Positions 7,071 to 25,513 of a DNA stretch of 64,000 nt are shown one piece after another; positions within the stretch are counted from its first letter, which is position 1; every line of letters starts with the position of its first letter. Under the pieces are notes generated by a model that was not told the origin of the DNA, made no database searches, and saw only the letters and a program-made list of their open reading frames with translations. Position numbers and translations under genes: made by a program. This DNA is from Geodermatophilaceae bacterium NBWT11 (GTDB taxonomy: Bacteria; Actinomycetota; Actinomycetes; Mycobacteriales; Geodermatophilaceae), in NCBI GenBank assembly GCA_014218215.1, contig CP043652.1, positions 4,464,001 to 4,528,000 on the forward strand, written 5' to 3'.

Positions 7071-7247
7071 CCCGCACAGCGGCACCGGCCGACCACCGCG
7101 CCCCGTGACGCAGATCAACCTGGTCAGGGAGTCTGTTTTTCCCCAACGGGGATAATCTGTCTCCGGGTTCGACCGAACCCCCGCGCCAGCCCGACGACGA
7201 CGTCCACGGCCGGATGTGCACCGCTCTCAGGTGGAGGCCTGATCTTC

Positions 7248-9548: not shown

Positions 9549-10247
9549 TCAGGCGTTGTCGTCGCCGACGACCGGGACCACCGCGTCCAGCTGCTGGGCC
9601 AGGCCGGCGATGCACACGTCCACCTCGAAGCCCCACTGCCCCGGGTCGATGCCCGGCTCGTCGATCGCAGCCAGCCGGCGGAGCGCCGGGAAGTCGTCGG
9701 CCGCCTGCCGCAGCACCGCGACCTGGGCCCGGCTCGCGGACACCCCCGGGTCCCGCGAACCGGTCCCGGTCGCCTCCCGGAGAGCGTCCCTCCCCGATGC
9801 GGTGGCCTGGGAGGAGATCGACCGGAGGCACCGGGCGACGGTCCGCACCGGGAAGCCGCTGTCCAGGAGCACCTGGATGAGGTCGTCCACCGGGCGCAGC
9901 GTGGCACCCAGCGACGCATGCTGGAGGTGGAAGTGCGGCGCCAACGGACCCATCTGCAGCACGGCAGCACGCACACCGTCCGCGTAGACCCGGACGGCCT
10001 CCTGCCAGGTGCCGGCGCGGGCGACGTCCAACCGGGCCATCACCTCCGCGAAGACGTCGGCGGCGACCAGCTCCAGCAGCCCGTCGCGGTCGCTGACGTG
10101 GTAGTTCAGGGTCTTGCGGTCCACGCCGAGGGCGTCGGCGACCACCTGCATGGTGAGTGTCTCGGCCGGGATGGCGCGTGCTGCCGCGACGATGCGAGCC
10201 CGGTCGACGAGCGGTGGTCGACCGCGTCGGCGGGGTTCGTCGGTCAC
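9549..10247 (-). CDS. TetR-family regulator, last gene of the SGNH-FUSC operon
   Basis: A 232-residue TetR protein beginning with a basic arm (RRRGRPPLVDRARIV) and an HTH ending in LGVDRKTLNYHVSDRDGLLE. This HTH wording is shared with the two TetR proteins of the glycoside region (15.5 and 20.4 kb), so the three are likely paralogs. The GTG start overlaps the FUSC stop by four bases, so it is probably translated from the same message and may autoregulate the operon. Confidence 0.87.
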   Translation of the reverse strand: MTDEPRRRGRPPLVDRARIVAAARAIPAETLTMQVVADALGVDRKTLNYHVSDRDGLLELVAADVFAEVMARLDVARAGTWQEAVRVYADGVRAAVLQMGPLAPHFHLQHASLGATLRPVDDLIQVLLDSGFPVRTVARCLRSISSQATASGRDALREATGTGSRDPGVSASRAQVAVLRQAADDFPALRRLAAIDEPGIDPGQWGFEVDVCIAGLAQQLDAVVPVVGDDNA

Positions 10248-12865: not shown

Positions 12866-12904
12866 TGAGCCGGCCGGGGTGCACGGAACACCCCGGCCGG
12901 CTCA
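12866..12904 (-). terminator. Terminator after the GH3 gene
   Basis: A perfect 16-bp stem (12866-12881 with 12889-12904) and a 7-base loop, located 37 bp beyond the GH3 stop and before the SGNH gene. It separates the glycosidase from the SGNH-FUSC operon. Confidence 0.8.
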
Positions 12905-12940: not shown

Positions 12941-15352
12941 TCAGCGCGTCGCGGTCACCTCGACCCCGGAGAAGAAGCTCCGCTCGCTCGAGCGGAGCTC
13001 GGTGCGCTCGCCGGTCACGGCGAACGAGCCGGTCAGCGGGAGGTCCTCCGAGGACGTCCCGACGAACACCTCGGTACGACCGGGGTCGACCGAGAAGCCG
13101 CCCTGGGCGTTGGTGTGGCCGAGCTGACTGGCCGCGAGCGAGAAGACCACCCGTCGACTCTCACCGGGCTGCAGCTCGACCCGGGAGAACCCGGCCAGCG
13201 TCTGGGCGGCGCGGGTCACGCCACTCGTCCGGATGCCCAGGTAGAGCTGCACGACCTCGGCACCGGACCGCGCACCCGTGTTGGTCACGGTGGCGGCGAC
13301 CGTCGTCCCGCCCGTGGTGTCGATCGACTCCGCACCGATCTCGAGGTCGGTGAGGTCGAAGGTCGTGTAGCTCAGCCCGTGGCCGAAGGGGTACAGCGGG
13401 GTGGCCGGGCCGTCGATGTAGTGCTGACCGAACGGCGTGTGGCTGCGGTACCCGCTCGCGCTGCGCTGGTGGTGGAAGACGGGCAGCTGCCCCTGGTGCC
13501 GGGGCAGCGTGAAGGGCAGCTTCCCGCCGGGGTTGAGCTCGCCGACCAGGACCCGACTCATCGCCACCAGCCCGCCGACCCCGTTGTAGGAGGCCGACAC
13601 GATCGCCCGGGCGTCGAGCAGGGCCGGGGGCAGCACGTAGGGGCGCCCCTGCACGAGCACCACGACCGTGGGCTTCCCCAGCGCGGTGACGGCGTCGACC
13701 AGCCGCCGCTGCACCTCGGGCAGCTCGATGCTCAGCGAGTCGCTCGCCTCGCCCTCGGTGCGGTCACCGACGAACCAGGCACTGGCACCACCCACGGCCA
13801 GGACGACCACGTCGGCCGCGCGGGCCGCGGACACCGCCCGCTCGAATGCCTCCTCGCCGAGGTCGGCCACGATGCCGGTCCCCGCCTCGGCGACCACGGT
13901 GAGGCCGCGGTCGCCGAGCTCCTCGGCCAGTCCGCGGACGCCGTAGTGGTCCCGGACCCACTCCTCCTGGGTCAGCGGCTTGGCGGTCGAGGTGTCGGCC
14001 GTCGGGAGGTAGTCCTCCATGCCGACCATGTTGTTGAAGCCGCCCTGGGCCATGAACAGGCCCACAGACCGGGCTGCCGGGAACGAGTAGGCGCCGTACT
14101 GCAGCGCGGCGGCGTCGGCGTGCGGGCCCACGACGGCCACGGAACCCGCGTCGGGGCCCAGCGGGAGGAGGCCGTCGTTCTTCAGCAGGGTGACCGAGCG
14201 GTCGGCCATCTCCTGCGCCAGCTCGCGCCCCTCGGCAGCGACGGCAGCGAGGTCGATGGACTCCTGCGCGTAGGGCTGCTCGAAGAGGCCGAGCTCGAAC
14301 TTCGCGGTGAGCAGCCGCAGGACCGAGGGGTCCAGCAGGTCCTCGGCGATCCGGCCGGCGTGCACCTCGGCCGCGAGCGTCGACCCGTAGGACCACGGGG
14401 AGGGCAGCTCGAGGTCCAGGCCGGCTTCGAGACCGAGCCGGGCGGCCTCGGCGGCATCGACCGCGGCCAGCGCCCGGTCCACGACGTGCTGGAAGGAGAT
14501 GTAGTCCGAGGAGACGTATCCCTGGAACTCGAGGGTGGTGCGGAGGAGATCGGTCAGCAGCTCGCGGGAGATGGCGGCCGGCACGCCGTCGACCTCGGAG
14601 TAGGTGTTCATGACCGAGCGCAGACCGCCCAGCTGGATGGCCGCCTCGAAGGGCAGCGCGAAGACGTCGCGGATGCGCCGGGAGCCCGCCTCGACGTTGG
14701 CCGAGTTGAGACCTCCCTCGGAGGCGCCGTAGCCCAGGAAGTGCTTGCCGGTGGCCACCACGCCGTCGGACAGACCGGCGCCCTGCAGGCCGGTCACGTA
14801 CGCGGTGCCGAAGGCCGCGACGAGGTAGGGGTCCTCGCCGTAGGTCTCGTGCACCCGGCCCCAGCGAGGCTCCAGCGAGACGTCGAAGACCGGCCCGAGT
14901 GCCTGGCTCATCCCCAGCCGGCGCATCTGCTGCCGGACCACGTCGCCCATCTGCTGGCTCAGCTCGGGGCTCCACGTGGCCGCGACCCCCGACTGGGTCG
15001 GGAAGACGACGTGCCCGGGTGCCTGCAGGCCGGCGATGGCCTCGTTGTGGAAGACCGCCGGCACGCCGAGCCGGGTGTTCTCGACCAGGTGGCGCTGGAT
15101 CAGGTTGATCTCGTCGGCGATGCGCTGCGGCGTCGTCCCACCGGTCGACGTCAGCGGGGCCACCTGGCCGATGCCGTGACCCAGCACCTGCTCGACGGTG
15201 TCGGCGCGGAGGCCGTCAGGGCCGAGCACGGACGGCGGCATGATGCAGGTCAACTGCTGCGCCTTCTCCTCGACGGTCATCTCCTCGAGCAGCGCCTGGG
15301 CGCGCTCGTGCGCGGACAGCGAGGCGTCTCGGAAGCGGGTCAGGTCGGACAT
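12941..15352 (-). CDS. GH3 beta-glucosidase/beta-xylosidase with FnIII-like tail
   Basis: An 803-residue glycoside hydrolase family 3 enzyme. The N-terminal barrel holds GKHFLGYGASEGG and the nucleophile in VSSDYISF (Asp283). The middle alpha/beta sandwich runs to about residue 660, followed by a fibronectin-III-like domain ending near FVGTSSEDLPLTG. No signal peptide is visible, so it acts inside the cell on imported glycosides. The ATG at 15352 follows GAAGGAGT, although the frame remains open well upstream. Its promoter region (15382-15427) carries the TTTCC...GGAAA operator shared with the transport genes. Sugar specificity (glucose, xylose or other) is not certain. Confidence 0.92.
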   Translation of the reverse strand: MSDLTRFRDASLSAHERAQALLEEMTVEEKAQQLTCIMPPSVLGPDGLRADTVEQVLGHGIGQVAPLTSTGGTTPQRIADEINLIQRHLVENTRLGVPAVFHNEAIAGLQAPGHVVFPTQSGVAATWSPELSQQMGDVVRQQMRRLGMSQALGPVFDVSLEPRWGRVHETYGEDPYLVAAFGTAYVTGLQGAGLSDGVVATGKHFLGYGASEGGLNSANVEAGSRRIRDVFALPFEAAIQLGGLRSVMNTYSEVDGVPAAISRELLTDLLRTTLEFQGYVSSDYISFQHVVDRALAAVDAAEAARLGLEAGLDLELPSPWSYGSTLAAEVHAGRIAEDLLDPSVLRLLTAKFELGLFEQPYAQESIDLAAVAAEGRELAQEMADRSVTLLKNDGLLPLGPDAGSVAVVGPHADAAALQYGAYSFPAARSVGLFMAQGGFNNMVGMEDYLPTADTSTAKPLTQEEWVRDHYGVRGLAEELGDRGLTVVAEAGTGIVADLGEEAFERAVSAARAADVVVLAVGGASAWFVGDRTEGEASDSLSIELPEVQRRLVDAVTALGKPTVVVLVQGRPYVLPPALLDARAIVSASYNGVGGLVAMSRVLVGELNPGGKLPFTLPRHQGQLPVFHHQRSASGYRSHTPFGQHYIDGPATPLYPFGHGLSYTTFDLTDLEIGAESIDTTGGTTVAATVTNTGARSGAEVVQLYLGIRTSGVTRAAQTLAGFSRVELQPGESRRVVFSLAASQLGHTNAQGGFSVDPGRTEVFVGTSSEDLPLTGSFAVTGERTELRSSERSFFSGVEVTATR

Positions 15353-15381: not shown

Positions 15382-15427
15382 TTTCCCCCGTGCGTGGAAA
15401 AGTACGGCCCGTGCCAGGATCGTGCAA
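15382..15427 (-). promoter_or_regulatory. GH3 promoter with TTTCC/GGAAA operator
   Basis: Reading the minus strand, TTGCAC (15422-15427), a 17-bp spacer and TACTTT (15399-15404) form a promoter for the GH3 gene. A symmetrical element TTTCC...GGAAA (15382-15400) overlaps the -10. Its core resembles the operator at 16364-16384 in front of the first MFS carrier, with which it shares an ACGC centre. Confidence 0.65.
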
Positions 15428-15547
15428 GGTCCTGCACCCGCGGGTCGCCGTCCCACCGAACGCCCGACACCCGCCGCCTACGATGCTCGGGGCGTCGGCA
15501 GCTGTCCGACCGCGGTGCCCAGGACCGCATGATCGAGACGAGGTCCG

Positions 15548-16246
15548 GTGGCTGCTCAGCACGGGGAAGGCACCCCGCGGACCGCGGGTGACGGCACCCC
15601 CCGTCGAGGCCGTGGTCGCCCCCCGCGGGTGTCCCGCGCCTCGATCATCGAAGCCGCCCGCGGCGTACCGGCCGAGGACCTGTCGGTCCAGGCGGTCGCC
15701 ACCCGGCTGGGCGTGGACCGGTCCACCATCACCTACCACTTCGCCGACCGGGACGAGCTCTTCGCGACGCTCGCCTCCGTCGTCCTGGGCTCCGAGCTCG
15801 CCGCCCTGACCCCGCCGACGAGCGACCGGTGGCAGGACTGGGTGGCGAGCTACGCCACCGGCGTCTACGACGCCCTGGTCCGGCACTCGGCCGTCGCCGT
15901 CTACGTGCGCATGCCCCTGGGCATCGACGCCGCGTCGCTGACCCCGGTGGAGAGCCTGGTGCAGAAGCTGGCCGCGGCCGGGTTCCCCGACGAGACCATC
16001 GGGCACGCGGTGGCGTACATCAGCGAGGTCGTGCACGCCGTCGCCCAGAACCAGGTCCTGGTCGCCCGCGGGCGGCACCCGCAGGAGGCAGAGCTCACCC
16101 GGTACCTCGACGGCCAGGGCGAGGACGTCGCCCCCGGCCTGCGCCGACTGGCCCGAGGCGACCTCCTGGGTCGCCCGGACCACGTGGACTTCGCCATCCG
16201 CGCCCTCGTGGCCGGCCTGGAAGCGCAGCTCTCACACCGGTCCTGA
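15548..16246 (+). CDS. TetR-family regulator of glycoside module 1
   Basis: A 232-residue TetR protein with a basic N-terminal arm (RGRGRPPRVSRASIIEAARG) and an HTH ending LGVDRSTITYHFADRDELFA. It is divergent from the GH3 gene and precedes the first sugar-type MFS carrier. Both neighbouring promoters carry a long TTTCC...GGAAA operator, so it is the best candidate regulator for them. The GTG at 15548 is assumed; the ribosome site is weak. It is paralogous to the regulator at 20428 and similar to that at 10247. Confidence 0.85.
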   Translation: MAAQHGEGTPRTAGDGTPRRGRGRPPRVSRASIIEAARGVPAEDLSVQAVATRLGVDRSTITYHFADRDELFATLASVVLGSELAALTPPTSDRWQDWVASYATGVYDALVRHSAVAVYVRMPLGIDAASLTPVESLVQKLAAAGFPDETIGHAVAYISEVVHAVAQNQVLVARGRHPQEAELTRYLDGQGEDVAPGLRRLARGDLLGRPDHVDFAIRALVAGLEAQLSHRS

Positions 16247-16336
16247 CGCCCGTCGGGGACGACGACGGCAGCGAGCAGGCGCGGTCGGGGAGTGGCCGTC
16301 GCACGGGCGGACCGGACGAGTCTCCCGGCGTGCCCC

Positions 16337-16384
16337 TTGCTGTCCAGGTGAGACATCCCCTACTTTCCCCACACGCGTGGGAAA
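16337..16384 (+). promoter_or_regulatory. Promoter and operator of MFS carrier 1
   Basis: TTGCTG (16337-16342), an 18-bp spacer and TACTTT (16361-16366) form a promoter. An imperfect palindrome of TTTCCCC and GGGAAAA arms around ACACGCGT (16364-16384) begins inside the -10, so a bound repressor would block RNA polymerase. Confidence 0.7.
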
Positions 16385-16465
16385 AGAGTGGAGCAGGCCG
16401 TCCAGGCCCGGACTCCCGGTCCTCCCCCGCCCCTCAGAGCCCTCGGACACCGGAGTTCACCCCTG

Positions 16466-17755
16466 ATGGACGTCACCGCCCCCACTACAGCCCTCGCCCC
16501 GCCGCCCCCCGCCCGGACGCCGCGCGGGTACGTGCCCACGTTCGCGCTGTCGGGTTTCGGCATCTACGTCGCCGTCCTGGCACCGCTGTACGGCGGCCTG
16601 TCGGTCAAGGTCCAGGACCTGGTCGGCCTCGACCAGGCCCCCCAGCTGCTGGGCCTGCTCACCGGGTCCGGAGCGCTGTTCTCCCTGGTCGTCCAGCCAC
16701 TGGCCGGCCGGCTCTCGGACCGGTCGATGTCCCGGTTCGGCATCCGCCGACCGTTCATCCTGGGCGGCGTCCTGGGCATGGTGCTGTCGCTGGTCGTCTG
16801 CGGCCTGGCACCCAACTTCCCCCTGCTGCTGGTCGCCTGGTGCGCCGGGCAGCTGTTCATCAACCTCGCGCTGGCCGCCCAGCACGCCACGCTGGCCGAC
16901 CAGGTGCCCGAGGAGAAGCGGGGCGGGGTCTCCGGCATCGTCGGCGCCGCCACGCCGGCAGCGATCCTGGGCGGGTCGCTGTTCCTGGCCATCGCGCCCA
17001 ACGACTTCCTCCGGTTCGCCCTCCCGGCACTGTTCGCCCTCGTCGTCACGATCATGTTCGTCCTCGTGCTCAAGGACCCGGTCCGCAAAGAGCGACCGAC
17101 CACGACCCTGGGCCTGCGCACGCTGCTCACCTCGTTCGTCTTCAGCCCGAAGAAGAACCCCGACTTCGCCTGGGCCTGGCTCAGCAAGCTGCTGATCCTG
17201 CTCGGGTACGGCAGCGTCGCCACCTACCTGACCCTCTTCCTCGGATCCAGCTACGGGATGACCACCGACGAACAGCTGAGCTTCAACGCCAAGGCCCAGA
17301 TCTTCGGGGTGGGGACGCTGATCGTCTTCAGCCTCGCCGGCGGGTTCATCTCCGACCGCGTCGGTCGACGCCGGCCGTTCGTGGTGGCGTCCGGGCTGGC
17401 CATCGCCGTGGGTGTGGTCCTGGTGGGCATCTCCCCGGTGTTCGGTCAGAGCGGAGGCCTGACGATGATCATCGTGGCCCAGGTCGTGATGGGCATGGGT
17501 GCCGGCACGTTCTTCGCCGTGGACCAGGCGCTGTGCATCTCCCTGCTGCCCGACCCGGAGGAGATGGCGAAGGACCTGGGCATCCTGAACCTCGCCCAGG
17601 TGCTGGCCAGCGCGGTCTCTCCCGTGCTCGCCGGGCTGGTCTTCATCCCGCTGGGCGGCCTGCTCTTCGGCGCCGGCTACGTCACCTGGTTCATGGTCGC
17701 TGCGGGCATCGCGGTCCTCGGCTCCGCGGCGGTCCTGAAGGTCAATGCCCGCTGA
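16466..17755 (+). CDS. MFS carrier 1, GPH/sucrose-type glycoside transporter
   Basis: A 429-residue, 12-helix MFS protein. The loop after helix 2 reads LSDRSMSRFGIRRPFILGG, close to the RFGRRRPFI signature of sucrose/glycoside-pentoside-hexuronide symporters rather than drug exporters. The frame is open from 16388, but that start lies at the operator, so ATG 16466 with CGGAG upstream is preferred. It is paralogous to the carrier at 21286 (near-identical motifs NDFLRFALPALFALV/NDFLRFVLPAAFGLL and FFAVDQALCISLLP). It probably imports glycosides for the neighbouring GH3 and GH2 enzymes. Confidence 0.87.
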   Translation: MDVTAPTTALAPPPPARTPRGYVPTFALSGFGIYVAVLAPLYGGLSVKVQDLVGLDQAPQLLGLLTGSGALFSLVVQPLAGRLSDRSMSRFGIRRPFILGGVLGMVLSLVVCGLAPNFPLLLVAWCAGQLFINLALAAQHATLADQVPEEKRGGVSGIVGAATPAAILGGSLFLAIAPNDFLRFALPALFALVVTIMFVLVLKDPVRKERPTTTLGLRTLLTSFVFSPKKNPDFAWAWLSKLLILLGYGSVATYLTLFLGSSYGMTTDEQLSFNAKAQIFGVGTLIVFSLAGGFISDRVGRRRPFVVASGLAIAVGVVLVGISPVFGQSGGLTMIIVAQVVMGMGAGTFFAVDQALCISLLPDPEEMAKDLGILNLAQVLASAVSPVLAGLVFIPLGGLLFGAGYVTWFMVAAGIAVLGSAAVLKVNAR

Positions 17756-17779
17756 CCCCTGCCGGGCCGGCTCCGAGAG

Positions 17780-17821
17780 TTGACGGCGCCCGGACTCGGA
17801 CATAGTTTCCCGGTCGGGAAA
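17780..17821 (+). promoter_or_regulatory. GH2 promoter with TTTCCC operator
   Basis: TTGACG (17780-17785) is followed after 17 bp by TAGTTT (17803-17808), which overlaps the 16-bp palindrome TTTCCCGGTCGGGAAA (17806-17821). The GH2 start lies 54 bp further on. Confidence 0.75.
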
Positions 17822-17875
17822 GAGACCGCGGCGCACCTGCGTCCGTGACCGGCGACGCAGCAGGAGGGGACGACG

Positions 17876-20344
17876 GTGCTCCGAACGTCTTTCGATCGTG
17901 ACTGGTACGTGGCGAGCGAGGGGGGCCAGCGAGCTGGTCGCGTGGGCCCGCTGACCCTGCCGCACGACGCGATGCTCACCGAGGAGCGGGACCCCGAGAC
18001 CAGTAACGGCGGCAACACGGGCTTCTACCCGGGAGGCGTCTACCGCTACTCCAAGACGTTCCACGCCCCCGCCGACTGGGCCCACATGAGCGTGGTGCTC
18101 GAGTTCGAGGGGGTGTACCAGAACTCGCAGGTGTTCCTGAACGGTGTCCGGGTCGGAGGACGCCCGTCGGGCTACGCCCTCTTCCACGTCCCGCTGGACG
18201 AGCACCTGCGGCTCGGGGAGGACAACACCGTCGAGGTCCTCGCCGACAACAGCTCCGAGCCCAACAGCCGCTGGTACACCGGCAGCGGCATCTACCGGCC
18301 GGTCCACCTGTTGGTCTCCGAGCAGGTGCACATCACCCCGACCGGTCTCCGGCTCTCGACCGTCGACCTGACGGGCACGACCGCCGTGGTCGCCGTCGTC
18401 ACGACCGTCGTGAACCAGGGCGCGGACGTGGCGGCGGTGACCGTCTCGGCGCAGCTGGCCCGGCCCGACGGGGCGGTGCTCGCACCGGAGACCAGCGACG
18501 TCGTCGTCCCCCCGGGCGAGGAGCGCGTTGTTCGGCAGCAGGTGGTCGTCGGCGACGCGGACCTGTGGTCACCGACCACCCCCCAGCTGCACACCGCGAC
18601 CGTGACGATCCTGGACGGACCCGAGGTGCAGGACGTCGCCAGCGACGAGTTCGGCATCCGCACCGTCACCGCCGACGCCCGGCACGGTCTGCGGATCAAC
18701 GGGGTACCGGTCAAGCTCCGCGGGTCGGCGGTGCACCACGACGCGGGTGTCATCGGGGCCCACACCCTGGACGCCGCCGAGGACCGTCGCATCCGGCTGA
18801 TGAAGGAAGCCGGCTACAACGCGGTGCGCAGCGCACACAACCCGGCTTCGCGGGCACTGCTGCGGGCCTGCGACCGGCACGGCTTCCTGGTCATGGACGA
18901 GCTCACCGACGCCTGGTTCCGACCGAAGGTGACGCACGACTACAGCGAGCTCTTCGTGCAGTGGTGGCAGCGCGACCTCGAGGCCCTCGTCGCCAACGCG
19001 CACAACCACCCGTCCGTGATCATGTACTCCATCGGCAACGAGATCGCCGAGACCTCGACCCGACTGGGCATCGACACCAACCGCATGCTGGCGCGGGCGA
19101 CCCGCGAGCTAGACCCCACCCGCTTGGTCACCAACGGCATCAACGGCTTCCTCAACCTGATCGCGCCGCAGGACGACGAGAAGGTCGCGGCCAAGACCGC
19201 CGCGGCCAAGAACAGCGACGAGAACCCCAACCGCAACCTCATCCGCGTGCTCAACCTGCTGCTGGGCGTGCTGGACGCGATGCTCGACCGGATCGTCCGA
19301 CTGCCCGCCGTCGACCGGCGCACCCGGGATACCTTCTCCGACCTGGACGTGGCCGGCTACAACTACATGGTCGGGCGTTACGAGCTCGACGGGCGACTGC
19401 ACCCCCACCGGGTGATCGTGGGGAGCGAGACCCGGGCCGCCCTGACCGCGGACGTCTGGCCCGAGGTCGAGTTCCGTCCCCACGTGATCGGTGACTTCAG
19501 CTGGACCGGCTGGGACTACATCGGCGAGGCCGGTCTTGCCGCCAAGGTCTACGGGACGAAGAAGCGGCAGATCTACTACCCCTACCCGGCTTTGCTGGCC
19601 GGCGAGCCGGTCATCGACATCACCGGCTTCCGGCAGACCCAGGCCTACCTCAACGAGATCGCCTGGCACCTCTCGTCGGGACCGCACATCGCGGTGGAGC
19701 CGGTCACCCGGTCCGGCGAGGTCAGCGTGAAGAAGGGCTGGCGCGCCACGGACTCGGTGGCCAGCTGGAGCTGGGCCGGCTGCGAGGGCCAGGACGCCGT
19801 GGTCGAGGTCTACACCGATGCGCCGAAGGTCGAGCTCTTCCTGAACGGCACCTCCGTCGGACAGGCCGACGGTGGGCGGGACGGGACCCACCTGACCCGC
19901 TTTCGGCTCCCCTACCAGCCCGGGGAGCTGCTGGCCGTCGCCAGCACGAAGGCGGGCGCCGAGGTCGGACGCCGGGTGCTGCGGACCGCGGGCGACGAGC
20001 TGGTGCTCACCGCCGTCCCGGAGACCACCTCACTGCGGGCGGATGGCGCGGATCTGGTCTACCTCCCCGTGCTGCTGACCGACGCCGCCGGGGAGCTGAA
20101 GCCCGGGGCCGACCGCAGCGTGACGGTCACCGTCGAGGGTCCGGCCACCCTGCTGGGCCTCGGGAGCGGCGAACCGATCACCGAGGAGGGGTTCGCCTCC
20201 GACACCCACCGGACCTACTTCGGGAGGGCACTGGCCGTCCTGCGCTCGACGCACGAGAGCGGTGAGGTCGCGGTGACGGTGTCCGCTCCCGGGTGCGCAC
20301 CGGTGATGGTGCACCTCGACGCCGTGGCTGCACCCGGAGCCTGA
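17876..20344 (+). CDS. GH2 family glycoside hydrolase (beta-galactosidase/glucuronidase type)
   Basis: An 822-residue cytoplasmic GH2 enzyme. It has a sugar-binding jelly-roll (about 1-165, RDPETSNGGNTGFYPGGVYR), an immunoglobulin-like domain (165-265), and a TIM barrel starting at LRGSAVHHDAG. The acid/base Glu389 is in YSIGNEIAE and the nucleophile Glu518 in VGSETRAA; C-terminal Ig-like domains follow. The GTG at 17876 has AGGAGGGG 6 bp upstream. The gene has its own promoter with a TTTCCC operator. Which glycoside it cleaves cannot be told from sequence; beta-galactosidase, glucuronidase or other GH2 activities are possible. Confidence 0.92.
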   Translation: MLRTSFDRDWYVASEGGQRAGRVGPLTLPHDAMLTEERDPETSNGGNTGFYPGGVYRYSKTFHAPADWAHMSVVLEFEGVYQNSQVFLNGVRVGGRPSGYALFHVPLDEHLRLGEDNTVEVLADNSSEPNSRWYTGSGIYRPVHLLVSEQVHITPTGLRLSTVDLTGTTAVVAVVTTVVNQGADVAAVTVSAQLARPDGAVLAPETSDVVVPPGEERVVRQQVVVGDADLWSPTTPQLHTATVTILDGPEVQDVASDEFGIRTVTADARHGLRINGVPVKLRGSAVHHDAGVIGAHTLDAAEDRRIRLMKEAGYNAVRSAHNPASRALLRACDRHGFLVMDELTDAWFRPKVTHDYSELFVQWWQRDLEALVANAHNHPSVIMYSIGNEIAETSTRLGIDTNRMLARATRELDPTRLVTNGINGFLNLIAPQDDEKVAAKTAAAKNSDENPNRNLIRVLNLLLGVLDAMLDRIVRLPAVDRRTRDTFSDLDVAGYNYMVGRYELDGRLHPHRVIVGSETRAALTADVWPEVEFRPHVIGDFSWTGWDYIGEAGLAAKVYGTKKRQIYYPYPALLAGEPVIDITGFRQTQAYLNEIAWHLSSGPHIAVEPVTRSGEVSVKKGWRATDSVASWSWAGCEGQDAVVEVYTDAPKVELFLNGTSVGQADGGRDGTHLTRFRLPYQPGELLAVASTKAGAEVGRRVLRTAGDELVLTAVPETTSLRADGADLVYLPVLLTDAAGELKPGADRSVTVTVEGPATLLGLGSGEPITEEGFASDTHRTYFGRALAVLRSTHESGEVAVTVSAPGCAPVMVHLDAVAAPGA

Positions 20345-20355
20345 GGCGGGCCGGG

Positions 20356-20385
20356 GCATGGCTTTCCCGCCGGGGAAAGCTATGC
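20356..20385. promoter_or_regulatory. 30-bp palindromic operator before TetR 2
   Basis: The core TTTCCCGCCGGGGAAA (20363-20378) lies in a longer palindrome 20356-20385 whose 13-bp arms differ at one position. It sits 43 bp before the TetR start, consistent with autoregulation. No clear -35 element is visible. Confidence 0.65.
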
Positions 20386-20427
20386 TCCGGCTGCCGGAGA
20401 GCCCGACACAGCAGCTGGGAGCCGCAC

Positions 20428-21135
20428 GTGACGACCGACCAGGGAACCGCGTCGAGCAGCAAGGGGCGACGTCGCGGCGGGCCGCTGCGCATCGACCGGA
20501 TCAAGATCGTAGAAGCCGCCCGCCGGCTGGACCCACAGGTCATGACGATGCAGGCGGTCGCCGACGAGCTCGGGGTGGACCGCAAGGCGCTGAACTACCA
20601 CGTCACCGACCGGGAGGGTCTCCTCCGCCTCGTCGCCGCCGACGTCTTCGAGTCCGGCTTCTCGGCCCTCTTCACATCAGCGCTGGCCCGCGCCGACCAG
20701 CGGATCCCCGAGGCCTGGCAGTCCGGTCTGCACGCCTGGGCGGTGGCCGTGCGGGACAGCATGGTCTCCACCGGCGTGCTGGCCGCCTACTACGAGATCG
20801 ACGGCACCACCCTCGCCGTCTTCGAGCCCGTGGAGATGGTCCTGCAGCGGATGCTCGACGCCGGCTTCGACCTCACGACTGCTGGGCGGGGTCTCATCAC
20901 CATCACCCGGACGGCCATGGGACTGGGCCGCGATGCCGTGCTCGCACAGCAGTCCGGCGAGCACCCGCAGTTCCGAGAGGTCAGCCGGGTGCTCTCCCGC
21001 GCGACCGGTGACGACGAGTACCCGGCGCTGCGGGGCATGGCAGCCGCCGGACTGAACTCCCCTGCCGACGCGACAGCACAGTTCGACTTCGAGGTCGGCC
21101 TGGTGCTCGACGCACTTGGTCGCCTGGCGCCCTAG
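20428..21135 (+). CDS. TetR-family regulator of glycoside module 2
   Basis: A 235-residue TetR protein with arm GRRRGGPLRIDRIKIVEAAR and an HTH ending LGVDRKALNYHVTDREGLLR. The GTG at 20428 follows a GGGA site; longer frames run back through the operator into the GH2 gene and are rejected. Sixteen-bp TTTCCC palindromes lie in front of this gene, of the preceding GH2 and of the following MFS, so it probably represses all three. Its closest relatives in the window are the TetR at 15548 and the one at 10247. Confidence 0.87.
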   Translation: MTTDQGTASSSKGRRRGGPLRIDRIKIVEAARRLDPQVMTMQAVADELGVDRKALNYHVTDREGLLRLVAADVFESGFSALFTSALARADQRIPEAWQSGLHAWAVAVRDSMVSTGVLAAYYEIDGTTLAVFEPVEMVLQRMLDAGFDLTTAGRGLITITRTAMGLGRDAVLAQQSGEHPQFREVSRVLSRATGDDEYPALRGMAAAGLNSPADATAQFDFEVGLVLDALGRLAP

Positions 21136-21165
21136 CGCACTCGAGGATCGCCGCCGCCGCGGTCC

Positions 21166-21227
21166 TTGACGCAGGTCACACCCCGCTCTATCTTTCCCGC
21201 ACGGGAAACACTTTCCCCTGCGGGAAA
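21166..21227 (+). promoter_or_regulatory. Promoter with two TTTCCC operators before MFS carrier 2
   Basis: TTGACG (21166-21171), a 17-bp spacer and TATCTT (21189-21194) make a strong promoter. Two palindromes follow, TTTCCCGCACGGGAAA (21193-21208) and TTTCCCCTGCGGGAAA (21212-21227). The first overlaps the -10 and the second covers the expected transcription start. Their 19-bp repeat distance suggests two dimers side by side. Confidence 0.8.
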
Positions 21228-21285: not shown

Positions 21286-22596
21286 ATGTCGGAGCACACC
21301 AGTGCGGGGACGACGGCCACAGCCGAGGACCCATCGCCCGAGACCATCGCGCCGCGGTCCCCCAAGGGCTACGTGCCCACAGCAGCGCTGGCGGGTTTCG
21401 GCCTCTACACCGCCCTGCTGACGCCGATCTTCGGCGGTCTCTCGGTCAAGATCCAGGACATGGTCGGGCTCGCCGACGCCCCGGCCCTGCTGGGGATCGT
21501 CACCGGCGCGGGTGCGGTCGTGTCCTCGGTGGTGCAGCCGATCGCCGGACGGCTGTCCGACCGGTCGACATCGCGGTTCGGCATGCGCCGACCGTTCATC
21601 CTCTTCGGGGCCATCGGGGTCTTCTTCGCCCTCATCGGGGTCGCTCTGGCGTCGAACTTCGTCACGCTGCTCCTGGCCTGGTGCCTGACCCAGGCTGCGG
21701 CGAACTTCGCCCTGGCCGCCAACCACACGACCCTGGCCGATCAGGTGCCCGAGGCACGCCGAGGAGGCGTCAGCGGGATCATCGGGGCGACGACTCCGGC
21801 CGCCATCCTCGGCGGCGCGCTGGTGCTCGCCGTGGCACCCAACGACTTCCTCCGGTTCGTGCTCCCGGCCGCCTTCGGTCTCCTCACGTCGATCATCTTC
21901 GTCATCGTCCTGAAGGACCGGGTCAGGACCGAGCCGCCGACCACCCCCCTCGGGATCAAGCAGATCTTCGGTTCGTTCCTCTTCGACCCGCGCAAGGCCC
22001 CCGACTTCGGCTGGGCCTGGCTCAGCAAGGCGCTCATCCTGCTCGGCTACGGAGGTGTCTCCACCTACCTGACGCTGTTCCTCGGCTCCTCCTTCGGCAT
22101 GGACACCGACGAGCAGCTGCAGTTCAACGCCATCGCGCAGGTCGTCGGCATCGCGACCCTCGTCGTCTTCAGCGTCGTCGGGGGCTACCTCTCGGACAAG
22201 CTCGGTCGCCGCAAGCCCTTCGTCCTGGCCTCCGGGCTCGTCATCGCCGCCGGCGTGCTCCTGTCTGCTGCTTCCCCTTCCTTCGGCGGGGGCGGGCTGG
22301 CCGTGCTACTGGTCGCGCAGGCGGTCATCGGCGCCGGCGCCGGGACGTTCTTCGCGGTGGACCAGGCGCTCTGCATCTCGTTGCTGCCCAATCCCGAGGA
22401 GATGGGCAAGGACCTGGGCATCCTCAACCTGGCCGGCACGATCCCGGGTTCCATCGCCCCCCTGCTCGCCGGGGTGCTGTTCATCCCGCTGGGCAACGCG
22501 CTCTTCGGCGGGGGTTACACCCTCTGGTTCAGCATCGCCGCAGCCATCGCCGTGATCGGCTCCCTGCTGGTGCTCAAGATCAAGGCTGGTCGCTGA
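21286..22596 (+). CDS. MFS carrier 2, GPH/sucrose-type glycoside transporter
   Basis: A 436-residue, 12-helix MFS protein paralogous to the carrier at 16466. The loop motif LSDRSTSRFGMRRPFILFG, the central loop FLFDPRKAPDFGWAWLSKAL and the late motif FFAVDQALCISLLPNPEEMG are nearly shared. ATG 21286 is chosen for the AGAGGAG site 7 bp upstream. It heads a run MFS-GH3-esterase whose last two genes overlap, so glycosides imported here are probably cleaved by the GH3 enzyme directly downstream. Confidence 0.88.
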   Translation: MSEHTSAGTTATAEDPSPETIAPRSPKGYVPTAALAGFGLYTALLTPIFGGLSVKIQDMVGLADAPALLGIVTGAGAVVSSVVQPIAGRLSDRSTSRFGMRRPFILFGAIGVFFALIGVALASNFVTLLLAWCLTQAAANFALAANHTTLADQVPEARRGGVSGIIGATTPAAILGGALVLAVAPNDFLRFVLPAAFGLLTSIIFVIVLKDRVRTEPPTTPLGIKQIFGSFLFDPRKAPDFGWAWLSKALILLGYGGVSTYLTLFLGSSFGMDTDEQLQFNAIAQVVGIATLVVFSVVGGYLSDKLGRRKPFVLASGLVIAAGVLLSAASPSFGGGGLAVLLVAQAVIGAGAGTFFAVDQALCISLLPNPEEMGKDLGILNLAGTIPGSIAPLLAGVLFIPLGNALFGGGYTLWFSIAAAIAVIGSLLVLKIKAGR

Positions 22597-22646: not shown

Positions 22647-24674
22647 ATGAGCGCAGCGACCACCCGCTTCCCGTACCAGGACCCGCAGCTGACCACGGAC
22701 CAGCGGGTCGAGGACCTGCTGGCACGCATGTCCGTGGCGGACAAGTGCGCGCTGATGTTCCACCCGATCCTCCCCTTCGGTGACTTCGACGCCCCGGGCA
22801 TCTTCGGCCTGCCCTCGGGACGGGTGCTCATCGACCGGGGGATCACCCACTTCAACCTGCTGCAGGCCCCGTCTGCCCGAGAGATCGCCCAGTGGACGAA
22901 CGCCGTCCAGGAGGAGGTCCGGCGCACCCCGCTGCAGATCCCGGTGACGTTCTCGACCGACCCTCGGCACGCCTTCAGCGACAACCCCGCCACCTCCCTG
23001 CTCGCCGGCCCGTTCTCCCAGTGGCCCGAGATGCTCGGGTTCGGCGCGCTGGACGACCCGGAGCTCGTCGAGCGGTTCGCCGACACCGTTCGCCGCGAGT
23101 ACCTCGCCGTCGGGATCCGGACCGCCCTCCACCCGCAGGTCGACATCGCCACCGAGCCCCGCTGGTCACGCGCCAGCACGACCTTCGGATCGAGCGCCGA
23201 CGTCGTCGGCCGACTGGGTGCGGCCTACGTGCGCGGACTCCAGGGCGCCGAGGTCGGCGCGGCGTCCGTCTCGGGCATGGCCAAGCACTTCCCCGGTGGT
23301 GGGCCCCAGAAGGACGGCGAGGACCCGCACTTCTCCTACGGCCGGGAGCAGGTCTACCCCGGCGGCAACTTCGACTACCACCTCGAGCCGTTCCGCAAGC
23401 TGATCGCCGCCGGCGTCTCGCAGATGATGCCGTACTACGGCATGCCGGTCGGCACGGAGTTCGAAGAGGTCGGGTTCAACTTCAACAAGGTCGTGCTCAC
23501 CGACATCCTGCGGGACCAGCTGGGCTTCCAGGGGATCATCTGCACCGACTGGGGCATCGTCTCGCGCCAGTTCTGGGGGGTCGAGGACCTCACCGAGGAC
23601 GAGCGGATGGTCAAGTCCATCGACGCCGGGGTCGACCAGTTCGGCGGGGAGACCGAACCCGCCCGCCTCGAGCGCCTCGTGCAGGACGGGCATGTGACCG
23701 AGGCGCGGCTGGACCAGTCCGTACGGCGGCTCCTGCGGGAGAAGTTCCGGCTCGGGCTCTTCGACGACCCGTTCGTGGACGTCGAGGCCGCCGCGACGAT
23801 CGTCGGATCGCCCGAGGCGCGACGCCAGGGTGTCGAGACCCAGGCGCACGCCCAGACGCTGCTCACGAACCACGACGGAGCGGCCCGCCTGCCGCTGGCG
23901 CCGAACACCCGGGTCTACGCAGAGGGCATCGACGCCGTGGTGCTGCGGCGCTGGGCGACGGTCGTCGCCACGCCCGAGGAGGCCGACGTCGCGGTCCTGC
24001 GGACGGTCGCGCCGTGGGAGAACCGTGGCAAGCCCGGCGAGCTGGAGAACTTCTTCCACGCCGGCTCGCTGGACTTCCACCCTGGAGAGCTCGCGCACAT
24101 CCGCGAGATCGCAGCGGTGGTGCCCACCGTCGTCGACGTGTACCTCGACCGGCCGGCGATCGTCGCGCCGTTCGTCGACGACGTCGCCACGCTGATCGTG
24201 AACTTCGGTTCGCACGACGAGGCCTTCGTGCGGGTCCTGTTCGGTGAGCTCGAGCCCCGGGGGCGGCTCCCCTTCGAGCTGCCCTCCTCGATGGCTGCCG
24301 TCGAGGCCGGTCACTCCGACGTCCCCGACGACACCCAGGACCCGACGTTCGCCGTCGGCTCCGGCCTGCGGTACGTCGACTGGGCCCCTGCCACGCCGCC
24401 GCACCGCGACCCCGCTGCTGCCGAGCAGGCCTCCACCACCCGGTGGGACCTGGACCGCTCCCCCGTCGGCGACGTGCTCGCCGATCCCGAGAGCCACGAG
24501 GTCATCGCCCGCCACATCCCCGAACTGGTGAGCAACCCGATGGTCTCCATGGCCCACTCCTTGTCGGTCAACGCCCTGCTGGGCATGGCCGCCGCCTCGG
24601 TCGACGAGGCCGTCCTGGCCGATTTGCGCCGCGACCTCTCTGCTCTCCCCCCTGTCGATCGGAGCACCTCGTGA
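22647..24674 (+). CDS. GH3 beta-glucosidase-type hydrolase
   Basis: A 675-residue family 3 glycoside hydrolase. Barrel motifs include HPQVDIATEPRWSRASTTFG, MAKHFPGGGPQKDGEDPH and the nucleophile in ICTDWGIVS (Asp301). The C-terminal domain is shorter than in the GH3 at 12941 and has no FnIII tail, and sequence similarity between the two is low. ATG 22647 follows GAAGGG. No signal peptide, so intracellular. It is the second gene of the module-2 operon; the stop overlaps the esterase start by four bases. Confidence 0.88.
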   Translation: MSAATTRFPYQDPQLTTDQRVEDLLARMSVADKCALMFHPILPFGDFDAPGIFGLPSGRVLIDRGITHFNLLQAPSAREIAQWTNAVQEEVRRTPLQIPVTFSTDPRHAFSDNPATSLLAGPFSQWPEMLGFGALDDPELVERFADTVRREYLAVGIRTALHPQVDIATEPRWSRASTTFGSSADVVGRLGAAYVRGLQGAEVGAASVSGMAKHFPGGGPQKDGEDPHFSYGREQVYPGGNFDYHLEPFRKLIAAGVSQMMPYYGMPVGTEFEEVGFNFNKVVLTDILRDQLGFQGIICTDWGIVSRQFWGVEDLTEDERMVKSIDAGVDQFGGETEPARLERLVQDGHVTEARLDQSVRRLLREKFRLGLFDDPFVDVEAAATIVGSPEARRQGVETQAHAQTLLTNHDGAARLPLAPNTRVYAEGIDAVVLRRWATVVATPEEADVAVLRTVAPWENRGKPGELENFFHAGSLDFHPGELAHIREIAAVVPTVVDVYLDRPAIVAPFVDDVATLIVNFGSHDEAFVRVLFGELEPRGRLPFELPSSMAAVEAGHSDVPDDTQDPTFAVGSGLRYVDWAPATPPHRDPAAAEQASTTRWDLDRSPVGDVLADPESHEVIARHIPELVSNPMVSMAHSLSVNALLGMAAASVDEAVLADLRRDLSALPPVDRSTS

Positions 24675-25513
24675 GTGGACACACCGGACCTGACGTCGTG
24701 GTCGTCGATGACGGGGTCGTCGCCGGACGGGGCGGGGAGATCCCCGTCCGGGACTACCGCCCGGCGTCACCGGCCGCCCGCACCGCCCTGCTGTGGGTGC
24801 ACGGCGGAGGGTTCACCAGCGGAGGTCTGGACCAGCAGGAGTCCGACGCGCCGGCCCGCTTCCTCGCCGCTGCCGGCACCCCGGTGCGCACCGTGGACTA
24901 CCGGCTGGCCCCGCGGGCGCTGCCCTGGCGGGACCCCGACCTCACCCCGCACCCCGGCCGCTACCCCGCCGGCCTGGACGACGTCGTCGACGTGGCCAGG
25001 GCACTGATCGAGGCCAGTGGTGGTCCCATCGCGATCGGCGGCGGGAGCGCCGGCGCCAACCTCGCCGCCGCCACCGTCCTGCGGCTCCGGGACGAGGGTC
25101 TGCCCCTCCCCCGCTCCGCGGTCCTCGCGTACGGCACCTTCCACGCGGTCCTCCCCGAGGACGAGCAGGTCGAGTCCGAGCTCAGCGGCATCCTCGCCAA
25201 GTGGGCCTTCAACCCGACGATGACCCGGCGGATGAACCTCAACTACGTCGGCGAACCGGGCGCGCTCGCACCCGGCTACCCGTTCCCCGGCGGGGCCGAC
25301 CTCCGCGACTTCCCACCCACCCTCCTCGTCGACGCCCGCAACGACCGGCTGCGGAAGTCGGGCCACACCTTCGCGGCCGAGCTCCGGGCAGCAGGCTCAG
25401 AGGTGCGGGAGACGGTGGTCGAGGCGCAGCACGGGTTCCTGAACAAGCCGCGCAAGCCCGCCTTCGCCACCGGCATGCGGGACATCGCGGCCTGGCTGAC
25501 CGCGCACGACTGA
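24671..25513 (+). CDS. Alpha/beta hydrolase, HSL-type, coupled to GH3
   Basis: A 280-residue HSL-type hydrolase. The oxyanion motif is HGGGFTSGG (about residues 42-50); the nucleophile elbow is IGGGSAGAN, so the usual GDSAG Asp is Gly. The acid lies in DARNDRLRKSG and the base in QHGFLN. The GTG at 24671 overlaps the GH3 stop (GTGA) with GGAG 6 bp upstream. Co-translation with a glycosidase suggests it removes acyl groups from glycosides or acts on the released aglycone; either role is inferred. Confidence 0.85.
   Translation: MSGHTGPDVVVVDDGVVAGRGGEIPVRDYRPASPAARTALLWVHGGGFTSGGLDQQESDAPARFLAAAGTPVRTVDYRLAPRALPWRDPDLTPHPGRYPAGLDDVVDVARALIEASGGPIAIGGGSAGANLAAATVLRLRDEGLPLPRSAVLAYGTFHAVLPEDEQVESELSGILAKWAFNPTMTRRMNLNYVGEPGALAPGYPFPGGADLRDFPPTLLVDARNDRLRKSGHTFAAELRAAGSEVRETVVEAQHGFLNKPRKPAFATGMRDIAAWLTAHD

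What the first reader, a model, noticed from the sequence alone, without database searches (positions are those of the whole stretch)
15382..21227. One TTTCCC...GGGAAA operator family placed at or beside the -10 of the glycoside-module promoters
Six sites with the same arms lie at 15382-15401, 16364-16384, 17806-17821, 20363-20378, 21193-21208 and 21212-21227. Four promoters (GH3, MFS1, GH2, MFS2) have good -35/-10 pairs whose -10 runs straight into the TTTCC arm. The first two sites are longer with an ACGC core, the last four are 16-bp palindromes. This points to two related TetR regulators with distinct but overlapping specificity, forming a local regulon.
Basis: partly seen in the sequence, partly recalled or inferred. 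Interest (0 to 1): 0.75.

Follow-up and report, generated by a model that had tools for sequence, protein, structure and literature searches.

The report
TetR operators controlling glycoside-use genes
Six near-identical palindromes in a soil-type actinobacterium are very probably the DNA switches of two related TetR-type repressors that control sugar-conjugate uptake and breakdown genes, and relatives suggest that one amino acid in the repressor goes with one base pair in the switch.

Summary
In detail: six sites as stated; the 16-bp form occurs nowhere else in the 4.59 Mb genome. Four promoters run into the operator in one register, though their hexamers match only 6-9 of 12 consensus bases.

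A site at 2 or fewer mismatches lies upstream of 39 of 72 non-redundant TetR homologues, against 18 of 1425 control stretches. Where the TetR gene lies downstream of GH3b, the site lies upstream of GH3b (3 of 4; 0 of 24 GH3b loci without that TetR). Sites beside TetR1 (Ser where TetR has Pro39) carry CACG halves; those at GH2, TetR2 (Lys) and MFS2 do not. Homologues show the same pattern: Lys 36 C:G, 0 A:T; non-Lys 0 C:G, 8 A:T, but the motif was framed on the same sites and only about 3 contrasts are independent. A similar promoter-operator precedes an SDR and acyl-CoA-ligase gene pair just outside the window.

Binding, inducer and substrate are inferred. New member of a known kind.

The parts
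15382..15401 (-). Long-type operator of GH3a (divergent GH3a/TetR1 gap); minus strand TTTTCCACG-CA-CGGGGGAAA
15399..15427 (-). GH3a promoter-like TTGCAC-17-TACTTT; last TTT of the -10 enters the operator
16364..16384 (+). Long-type operator of MFS1; minus strand TTTTCCCACG-CG-TGTGGGGAAAG (register chosen by eye)
16337..16366 (+). MFS1 promoter-like TTGCTG-18-TACTTT
17806..17821 (+). 16-bp operator of GH2
17780..17808 (+). GH2 promoter-like TTGACG-17-TAGTTT
20363..20378 (+). 16-bp operator 49 bp before TetR2 (probable autoregulation); no TTG-type -35 with a -10 entering the site
21193..21208 (+). 16-bp operator of MFS2, first of a tandem pair (start-to-start 19 bp)
21212..21227 (+). 16-bp operator of MFS2, second of the tandem pair
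21166..21194 (+). MFS2 promoter TTGACG-17-TATCTT
12941..15352 (-). GH3a, glycoside hydrolase family 3
15548..16246 (+). TetR1 (TetR_N + TetR_C_1), helix 3 VDRSTITYH (Ser at the TetR Pro39 position)
16466..17755 (+). MFS1 transporter
17876..20344 (+). GH2 (with DUF4982 and C5 domain), beta-galactosidase-like
   Evidence: below the NCBIfam cut-offs
20428..21135 (+). TetR2 (TetR_C_1), helix 3 VDRKALNYH (Lys at the TetR Pro39 position)
21286..22596 (+). MFS2 transporter
22647..24674 (+). GH3b, glycoside hydrolase family 3
24701..25513 (+). alpha/beta hydrolase (Abhydrolase_3), possibly in one operon with MFS2 and GH3b
9549..10247 (-). TetR3, third paralogue (TetR_C_1), Lys at the 39 position
7138..7154 (+). 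Weaker related palindrome TTTCCCCAACGGGGATA overlapping a -10-like GATAAT before MMPL; possible TetR3 operator

Best explanation
The six palindromes are operators of two paralogous TetR-family repressors (TetR_C_1 type) that control a local glycoside-use regulon. A TetR2 dimer most likely binds the 16-bp TTTCCCN4GGGAAA sites (consensus in homologues TTTCCCG-NN-CGGGAAA) at GH2, TetR2 itself and MFS2-GH3b (tandem pair). A TetR1 dimer most likely binds the longer sites with a CACG half at GH3a/TetR1 and MFS1, and probably one before an SDR and acyl-CoA-ligase gene pair just outside the window. At four window promoters and the outside one the operator starts within or directly after the -10-like element, so a bound dimer would block RNA polymerase until an inducer, probably the imported glycoside or its aglycone, releases it. 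The two specificities differ at the base pair beside the inner CG, which goes with the residue at the position of TetR Pro39 (Lys with C:G, Ser/Thr/Ala with A:T). Shown: sites, positions, uniqueness, co-occurrence with TetR genes, residue-base association. Inferred: binding, repression, inducer, substrate and the split of sites between the two proteins.
For: Genome-wide uniqueness and clustering. Shared promoter register. Sites upstream of 39 of 72 non-redundant homologues against 18 of 1425 control stretches of the same loci and 16 of 1440 shuffles. Pseudarthrobacter polychromogenes has the closest TetR2 (56%) with a tandem pair 20 bp apart and GH2, MFS, Abhydrolase_3, GH3b and GH3a genes beside it. 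The site follows the TetR gene: GH3b loci with TetR downstream 3 of 4 with a site at one mismatch or less upstream of GH3b, GH3b loci without TetR in the stretch held 0 of 24. Residue 39 against base: Lys 36 C:G and 0 A:T of 64 rows, non-Lys 8 A:T and 0 C:G of 11 rows; the residue changes 5 times on the tree, at least 4 forced. Lys aligns with the Pro of TetR chains that I recall as Pro39. TetR carrying V36F/E37A/P39K is reported to recognise tetO-4C5G, and TetR P39K not to recognise tetO.
Against: No binding or expression data. 33 of 72 homologues have no site at 2 mismatches or fewer in the 260 bp upstream; some have variant arms, four have GH3b upstream, others remain unexplained (for example L127, L023, L043, L104, L105, L110). 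The half-site motif was framed after looking at the same sites, so its Fisher value is descriptive; of the 8 A:T calls L079's is not its best site (one search gives T at both places) and L020's is weak; L083's mixed call is not its best site either (one search gives A:T); TetR3 (Lys) gave a poor T:A call. About 3 independent contrasts, sign test p 0.25. TetR1's sites are mixed: one half of 15382 and one of the outside site carry C. The promoter pattern alone is weak evidence genome-wide: 6 places at up to one mismatch against 4 for the reversed control. Pfam finds nothing in the closest TetR2 relative at E 0.001. Loose TTTCCN{4,10}GGAAA sites occur in 139 of 146 relatives.
Confidence: 0.82

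Rival explanations
1. One of the two TetR proteins (or a heterodimer) binds all six sites; the long and short forms are just variants, and the other TetR has a different target.
For: All six share TTTCC/GGAAA outer arms; 15382 and the outside site each carry one half of the C type; Lys-type homologues use spacers of 3, 4 and 5.
Against: The two long sites flank TetR1 and contain CACG halves that occur in none of the four short sites; this matches the residue 39 pattern in homologues.
Confidence: 0.25
2. The sites belong to a regulator other than these TetR proteins (for example a LacI-type sugar regulator).
For: Sugar-use operons are often LacI-controlled (general knowledge); binding is untested.
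Against: The site goes with the TetR gene and not with the GH3b gene (3 of 4 against 0 of 24), and its sequence goes with a TetR residue.
Confidence: 0.05
3. The palindromes act as RNA hairpins or attenuators rather than as protein sites.
For: They lie in 5' regions and five of the six have fully paired TTTCCC/GGGAAA arms.
Against: At four promoters they start in the -10-like element, so part of the arm would lie before the transcription start; base identity, not only pairing, is kept in homologues.
Confidence: 0.02

Closest known systems
TetR-tetO (tetracycline repressor)
   Same: TetR1-3 hit Pfam TetR_C_1 and TetR2 aligns with TetR chains of the PDB (best E 3.1e-4) through the HTH; palindromic operator. 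Engineered TetR with V36F/E37A/P39K recognises tetO-4C5G (passage in PMC6515661), and TetR P39K does not recognise tetO (passages in PMC6570905): Lys at the same aligned position.
   Different: Far below the NCBIfam TetR cut-off (29-44 bits against 265); operator of even length with other bases; neighbours are glycoside hydrolases and MFS genes of sugar-transporter kind.
EdcR estrogen-dependent TetR-family repressor of Caenibius tardaugens
   Same: Promoters of one catabolic cluster share a palindrome overlapping the -10, in weaker form also at the regulator's own promoter (passages of PMC8700777).
   Different: C-terminal domain is TetR_C_11 there; operator TnnCnnTACnAnTnGTAnnGnnA; steroid, not glycoside genes.
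Pseudarthrobacter polychromogenes TetR2-GH2-MFS-GH3 locus (L021)
   Same: Starred sister of TetR2; tandem 16-bp sites; GH3a 81% (285 aa, cut by the locus end), GH3b 80%, MFS 67%, GH2 66% identical.
   Different: One divergent promoter region with one tandem pair; only one TetR of this family seen in the 16.7 kb held; resolvase-like and transposase-like genes next to it.

Membership tests
TetR family, TetR_C_1 type | N-terminal TetR HTH (Pfam TetR_N), TetR1 | tested here: met
   27.7 bits against cut-off 24
TetR family, TetR_C_1 type | N-terminal TetR HTH (Pfam TetR_N), TetR2 and TetR3 | tested here: inconclusive
   TetR2 19.6 bits, below cut-off 24 (E 7.6e-4); TetR3 no match at E 0.001; both align through the HTH with TetR1 and TetR2 with TetR of the PDB
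TetR family, TetR_C_1 type | TetR_C_1 ligand/dimer domain | tested here: met
   26.0, 23.5 and 26.2 bits against cut-off 21
TetR family, TetR_C_1 type | Palindromic operator at own or neighbouring promoter | tested here: met
   sequence only:
TetR family, TetR_C_1 type | DNA binding released by a ligand | not testable with these tools
   needs gel shift and inducer screen
Tetracycline repressor (NCBIfam NF010319 equivalog) | Score above the curated cut-off of 265 bits | tested here: not met
   44.3, 29.2 and 35.5 bits
Operator group as defined here | TTTCCC/GGGAAA-like site upstream of the TetR gene | tested here: met
   window TetR1 and TetR2 yes, TetR3 no; 39 of 72 homologues; 3 of 4 with the site upstream of GH3b instead

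The most novel reading that the evidence does not exclude
Two neighbouring paralogous repressors have split one ancestral operator by a change at the residue equivalent to TetR Pro39, Lys going with C:G and Ser/Thr/Ala with A:T beside the inner CG, a switch that has happened several times in actinobacteria and resembles the engineered P39K change towards tetO-4C5G; in this genome the split couples deglycosylation and uptake (TetR2) to aglycone breakdown (TetR1).
Probability: 0.4. Interest if true: 0.6.

Novelty: new member of a known kind. Interest (0 to 1): 0.46.

Why it matters
It gives a TetR subfamily in actinobacteria a predicted operator and a testable residue-to-base rule with natural replicates, and it names a compact two-repressor regulon for uptake and breakdown of an unknown glycoside. 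If the rule holds, it also offers small, mutually distinct repressor/operator pairs that could be tried as expression tools.

Tried and rejected
Other regulators or RNA hairpins: see rivals. A GH3a-SGNH-FUSC-TetR3 operon under the 15382 operator: considered, but a strong inverted repeat lies between GH3a and SGNH (read), so not claimed. AbpBs, the GH2 arabinopyranosidase of Blastococcus saxobsidens (passages of PMC9728169): a lead for the GH2; length (801 aa) and the ends given by its primers differ from the window's GH2 (822 aa), not claimed.

Literature. Substrate or cluster: searches (18 of 18 listed; 20 of 55 listed; 7 of 7; 20 of 119; 1 of 1); in the listings I saw no paper on this cluster. 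Operator or covariation: searches (none found; 18 of 18 listed; none found; 12 of 1,375 listed); in the listings I saw no paper with this operator. One search (13 of 13 listed) led to the P39K papers. Passages were read in PMC6515661, PMC11686294 (reference list only), PMC6570905, PMC9728169 and PMC8700777; the rest were listings. The library holds open-licence papers only, so absence in print is not shown.

Methods. The palindrome scan ('pal' column) mostly picked G+C-rich repeats and was not used. One search failed to find the helix in 5 of 19 homologues; one search replaced it. The 85% redundancy filter is a crude end-anchored comparison. Some controls may hold true sites of neighbours. The tree kept the helix columns; operator labels were typed by hand (independent pairs 2 of 2) and called by script (mean 2.9 of 3). 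Loose sites in 146 relatives were too common outside the genus to be informative; the 8 other same-genus genomes have 1-3 each.
Full report
Observation. The six sites were read in the sequence and listed by script. In 64 kb at 72.6% G+C, TTTCCN6GGAAA gives 4 matches against 0.00 in shuffles. In the whole genome (one contig, 4,594,226 bases) it gives the same 4. TTTCCN{4,14}GGAAA gives 7 places, 6 here and one at G000:C1:2695342 with different inner bases. With up to two mismatches TTTCCCN4GGGAAA finds no one-mismatch site and 12 two-mismatch places, among them 7138 before MMPL. The looser TTTCCN{4,10}GGAAA is found in 139 of 146 relatives, 1-3 times in the 8 other same-genus genomes and up to 118 times in distant ones, so the loose form alone says little.

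Promoters. At GH3a (minus strand), MFS1, GH2 and MFS2 a TTG element lies 17-18 bp upstream of a TA-N3-T element whose end is the start of the operator. Consensus matches are 6, 6, 8 and 9 of 12; the scanner accepts only MFS2. The shape, chosen after seeing the four, occurs 5 times in the window on both strands, 4 of them at the operators. The TetR2 site has no such promoter.

Regulators. TetR1 (15548), TetR2 (20428) and TetR3 (9549-10247, minus) are TetR_C_1 proteins and are the three matches in this genome at E 1e-15 with TetR2 as query. Matches at that level occur in 5 of 146 relatives searched, own genome included, and in none of the 8 other same-genus genomes, one of which is only 73% complete. 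The module is therefore sparse and may be horizontally spread; the Pseudarthrobacter copy lies beside resolvase-like and transposase-like genes (named by eye).

Comparative test 1, site beside regulator. A scan of named genomes with the TetR alignment gave 80 loci (best 80 of 154 confirmed). Loci were chosen by protein only. In the 260 bp upstream, 39 of 72 have a site at 2 mismatches or fewer (spacer 3-5), against 18 of 1425 control stretches from the same loci and 16 of 1440 shuffles; 33 of 72 have none. Pairs of sites 17-21 bp apart (each at up to 3 mismatches) recur in L017, L021, L033, L044, L047, L050, L055, L080 and L097 and in L154, as at MFS2. Homologues of the window's GH3a/b, GH2 or MFS lie near the TetR gene in L016, L017, L021, L029, L031, L047, L050, L054, L064, L079 (weak) and L091; MMPL lies beside it in the Nakamurella locus L018/L063.

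Comparative test 2, the site goes with the regulator. One clade of nine rows, joined with TetR1 on a starred branch, showed no site upstream of its TetR genes. In four of its genomes the TetR gene lies downstream of a GH3b orthologue, which led me to look upstream of GH3b. A site was there in 3 of 4: GTTCCCTGGCGGGAAA (L126), TTTCCCACACGGGAAA (L128) and TTTCCGGGCGGGAAA (L129); in L128 and L129 it follows TTGACC-18-(C/G)ATTAT; L127 has none. GH3b orthologues at E 1e-150 were found in 26 of 394 genomes, own included, 28 loci besides our own. In the 24 of these without a TetR homologue in the stretch held (1.5 kb each side) no site at one mismatch or fewer was found, and 2 have a two-mismatch match. 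Fisher p 0.0012, not corrected for kinship. The other five rows of the clade (L104, L105, L110, L111, L117) have neither a site nor a GH3b match at that level.

Comparative test 3, residue and base. Reading the half-site as TTCqCG, the base q was called by a script that did not use the protein, but the motif was framed after looking at these sites. Among 64 Lys rows 36 gave C:G and none A:T; 10 gave no call and 18 other letters, including a poor T:A call for TetR3. Among 11 Ser/Thr/Ala rows 8 gave A:T, none C:G, one a mixed call (L083) and 2 no call (L116 and TetR1). Fisher 5.6e-9. L079's A:T call is not its best site: one search gives T at both places upstream, still not C:G; L083 gives A:T. 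On the tree the residue changes 5 times, at least 4 forced; independent pairs agree in a mean of 2.9 of 3, too few for significance. L029 and L081 have ATTCACG halves where their Lys neighbours have GTTCCCG: q and one outer base differ. The residue aligns with the Pro of TetR that I recall as Pro39. Engineered TetR with V36F, E37A and P39K recognises tetO-4C5G (passage of PMC6515661); P39K alone loses tetO (passages of PMC6570905).

In the window, the short sites have C at q in all eight halves. The long sites beside TetR1 have A in three of four halves by my reading (the register of 16364 was chosen by eye), C in one half of 15382. So the split is supported, not proved.

Outside the window. 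A long-type site, minus strand TTTCTCACG-TA-CGGGGAAAA, lies at G000:C1:4463495-4463514 with TTGCCG-17-TAATTT running into it, 70-89 bp before an SDR gene; an acyl-CoA-ligase gene follows about 150 bp after that. With two mismatches or fewer the long pattern has three places in the genome: 15382, this one and 1265179. The promoter pattern with spacer 17 has 6 places at up to one mismatch, 3 with operators (GH2, GH3a, SDR), against 4 for the reversed control, so it is the combination that counts. In the window are also an FMO-like gene, two Abhydrolase_3 genes, a thiolase-like gene, an alcohol dehydrogenase and a CoA-transferase gene. A pathway for sugar removal and aglycone breakdown, such as for a terpenoid or steroid glycoside, would fit; this is inference only.

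Verdict. Very probably a local two-repressor regulon of the TetR kind, with a candidate natural recognition rule. It is a new member of a known kind; the rule is the part worth testing. On checking, I lowered the main confidence from 0.83 to 0.82, the novel case from 0.45 to 0.4 and interest from 0.47 to 0.46, because the reversed control and the post-hoc framing had been left out.

Noticed in passing
G000:C1:4463495-4463514 (L123:8495-8514), 0.5 kb before the window: Long-type operator with TTGCCG-17-TAATTT promoter before an SDR gene and an acyl-CoA-ligase gene; probable further TetR1 target.
   Followed up: yes
window 7138-7154 and 9549-10247: Related weaker palindrome overlapping a GATAAT element before an MMPL gene, with a third TetR paralogue convergent with it; Nakamurella (L018/L063) has a TetR of this family divergent from MMPL with a site between.
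   Followed up: partly
L021:8763-10498: Resolvase-like and transposase-like genes beside the Pseudarthrobacter TetR2/GH locus, a hint of mobility; the open GH2 frame there is shorter than the window's (719 against 822 aa).
   Followed up: no
L019, L051, L060, L062, L066, L072, L076, L089, L090, L093, L112-L115, L119, L120: A subclade with helix 3 SRK(A/S)LHYY has its own 17-bp variant, roughly TTTNCCGNNNGGNGAAA, mostly near the projected start of the TetR gene.
   Followed up: partly
window 12867-12903: Inverted repeat GAGCCGGCCGGGGTG...CACCCCGGCCGGCTC between GH3a and the GDSL gene, without a T run; possible terminator.
   Followed up: no
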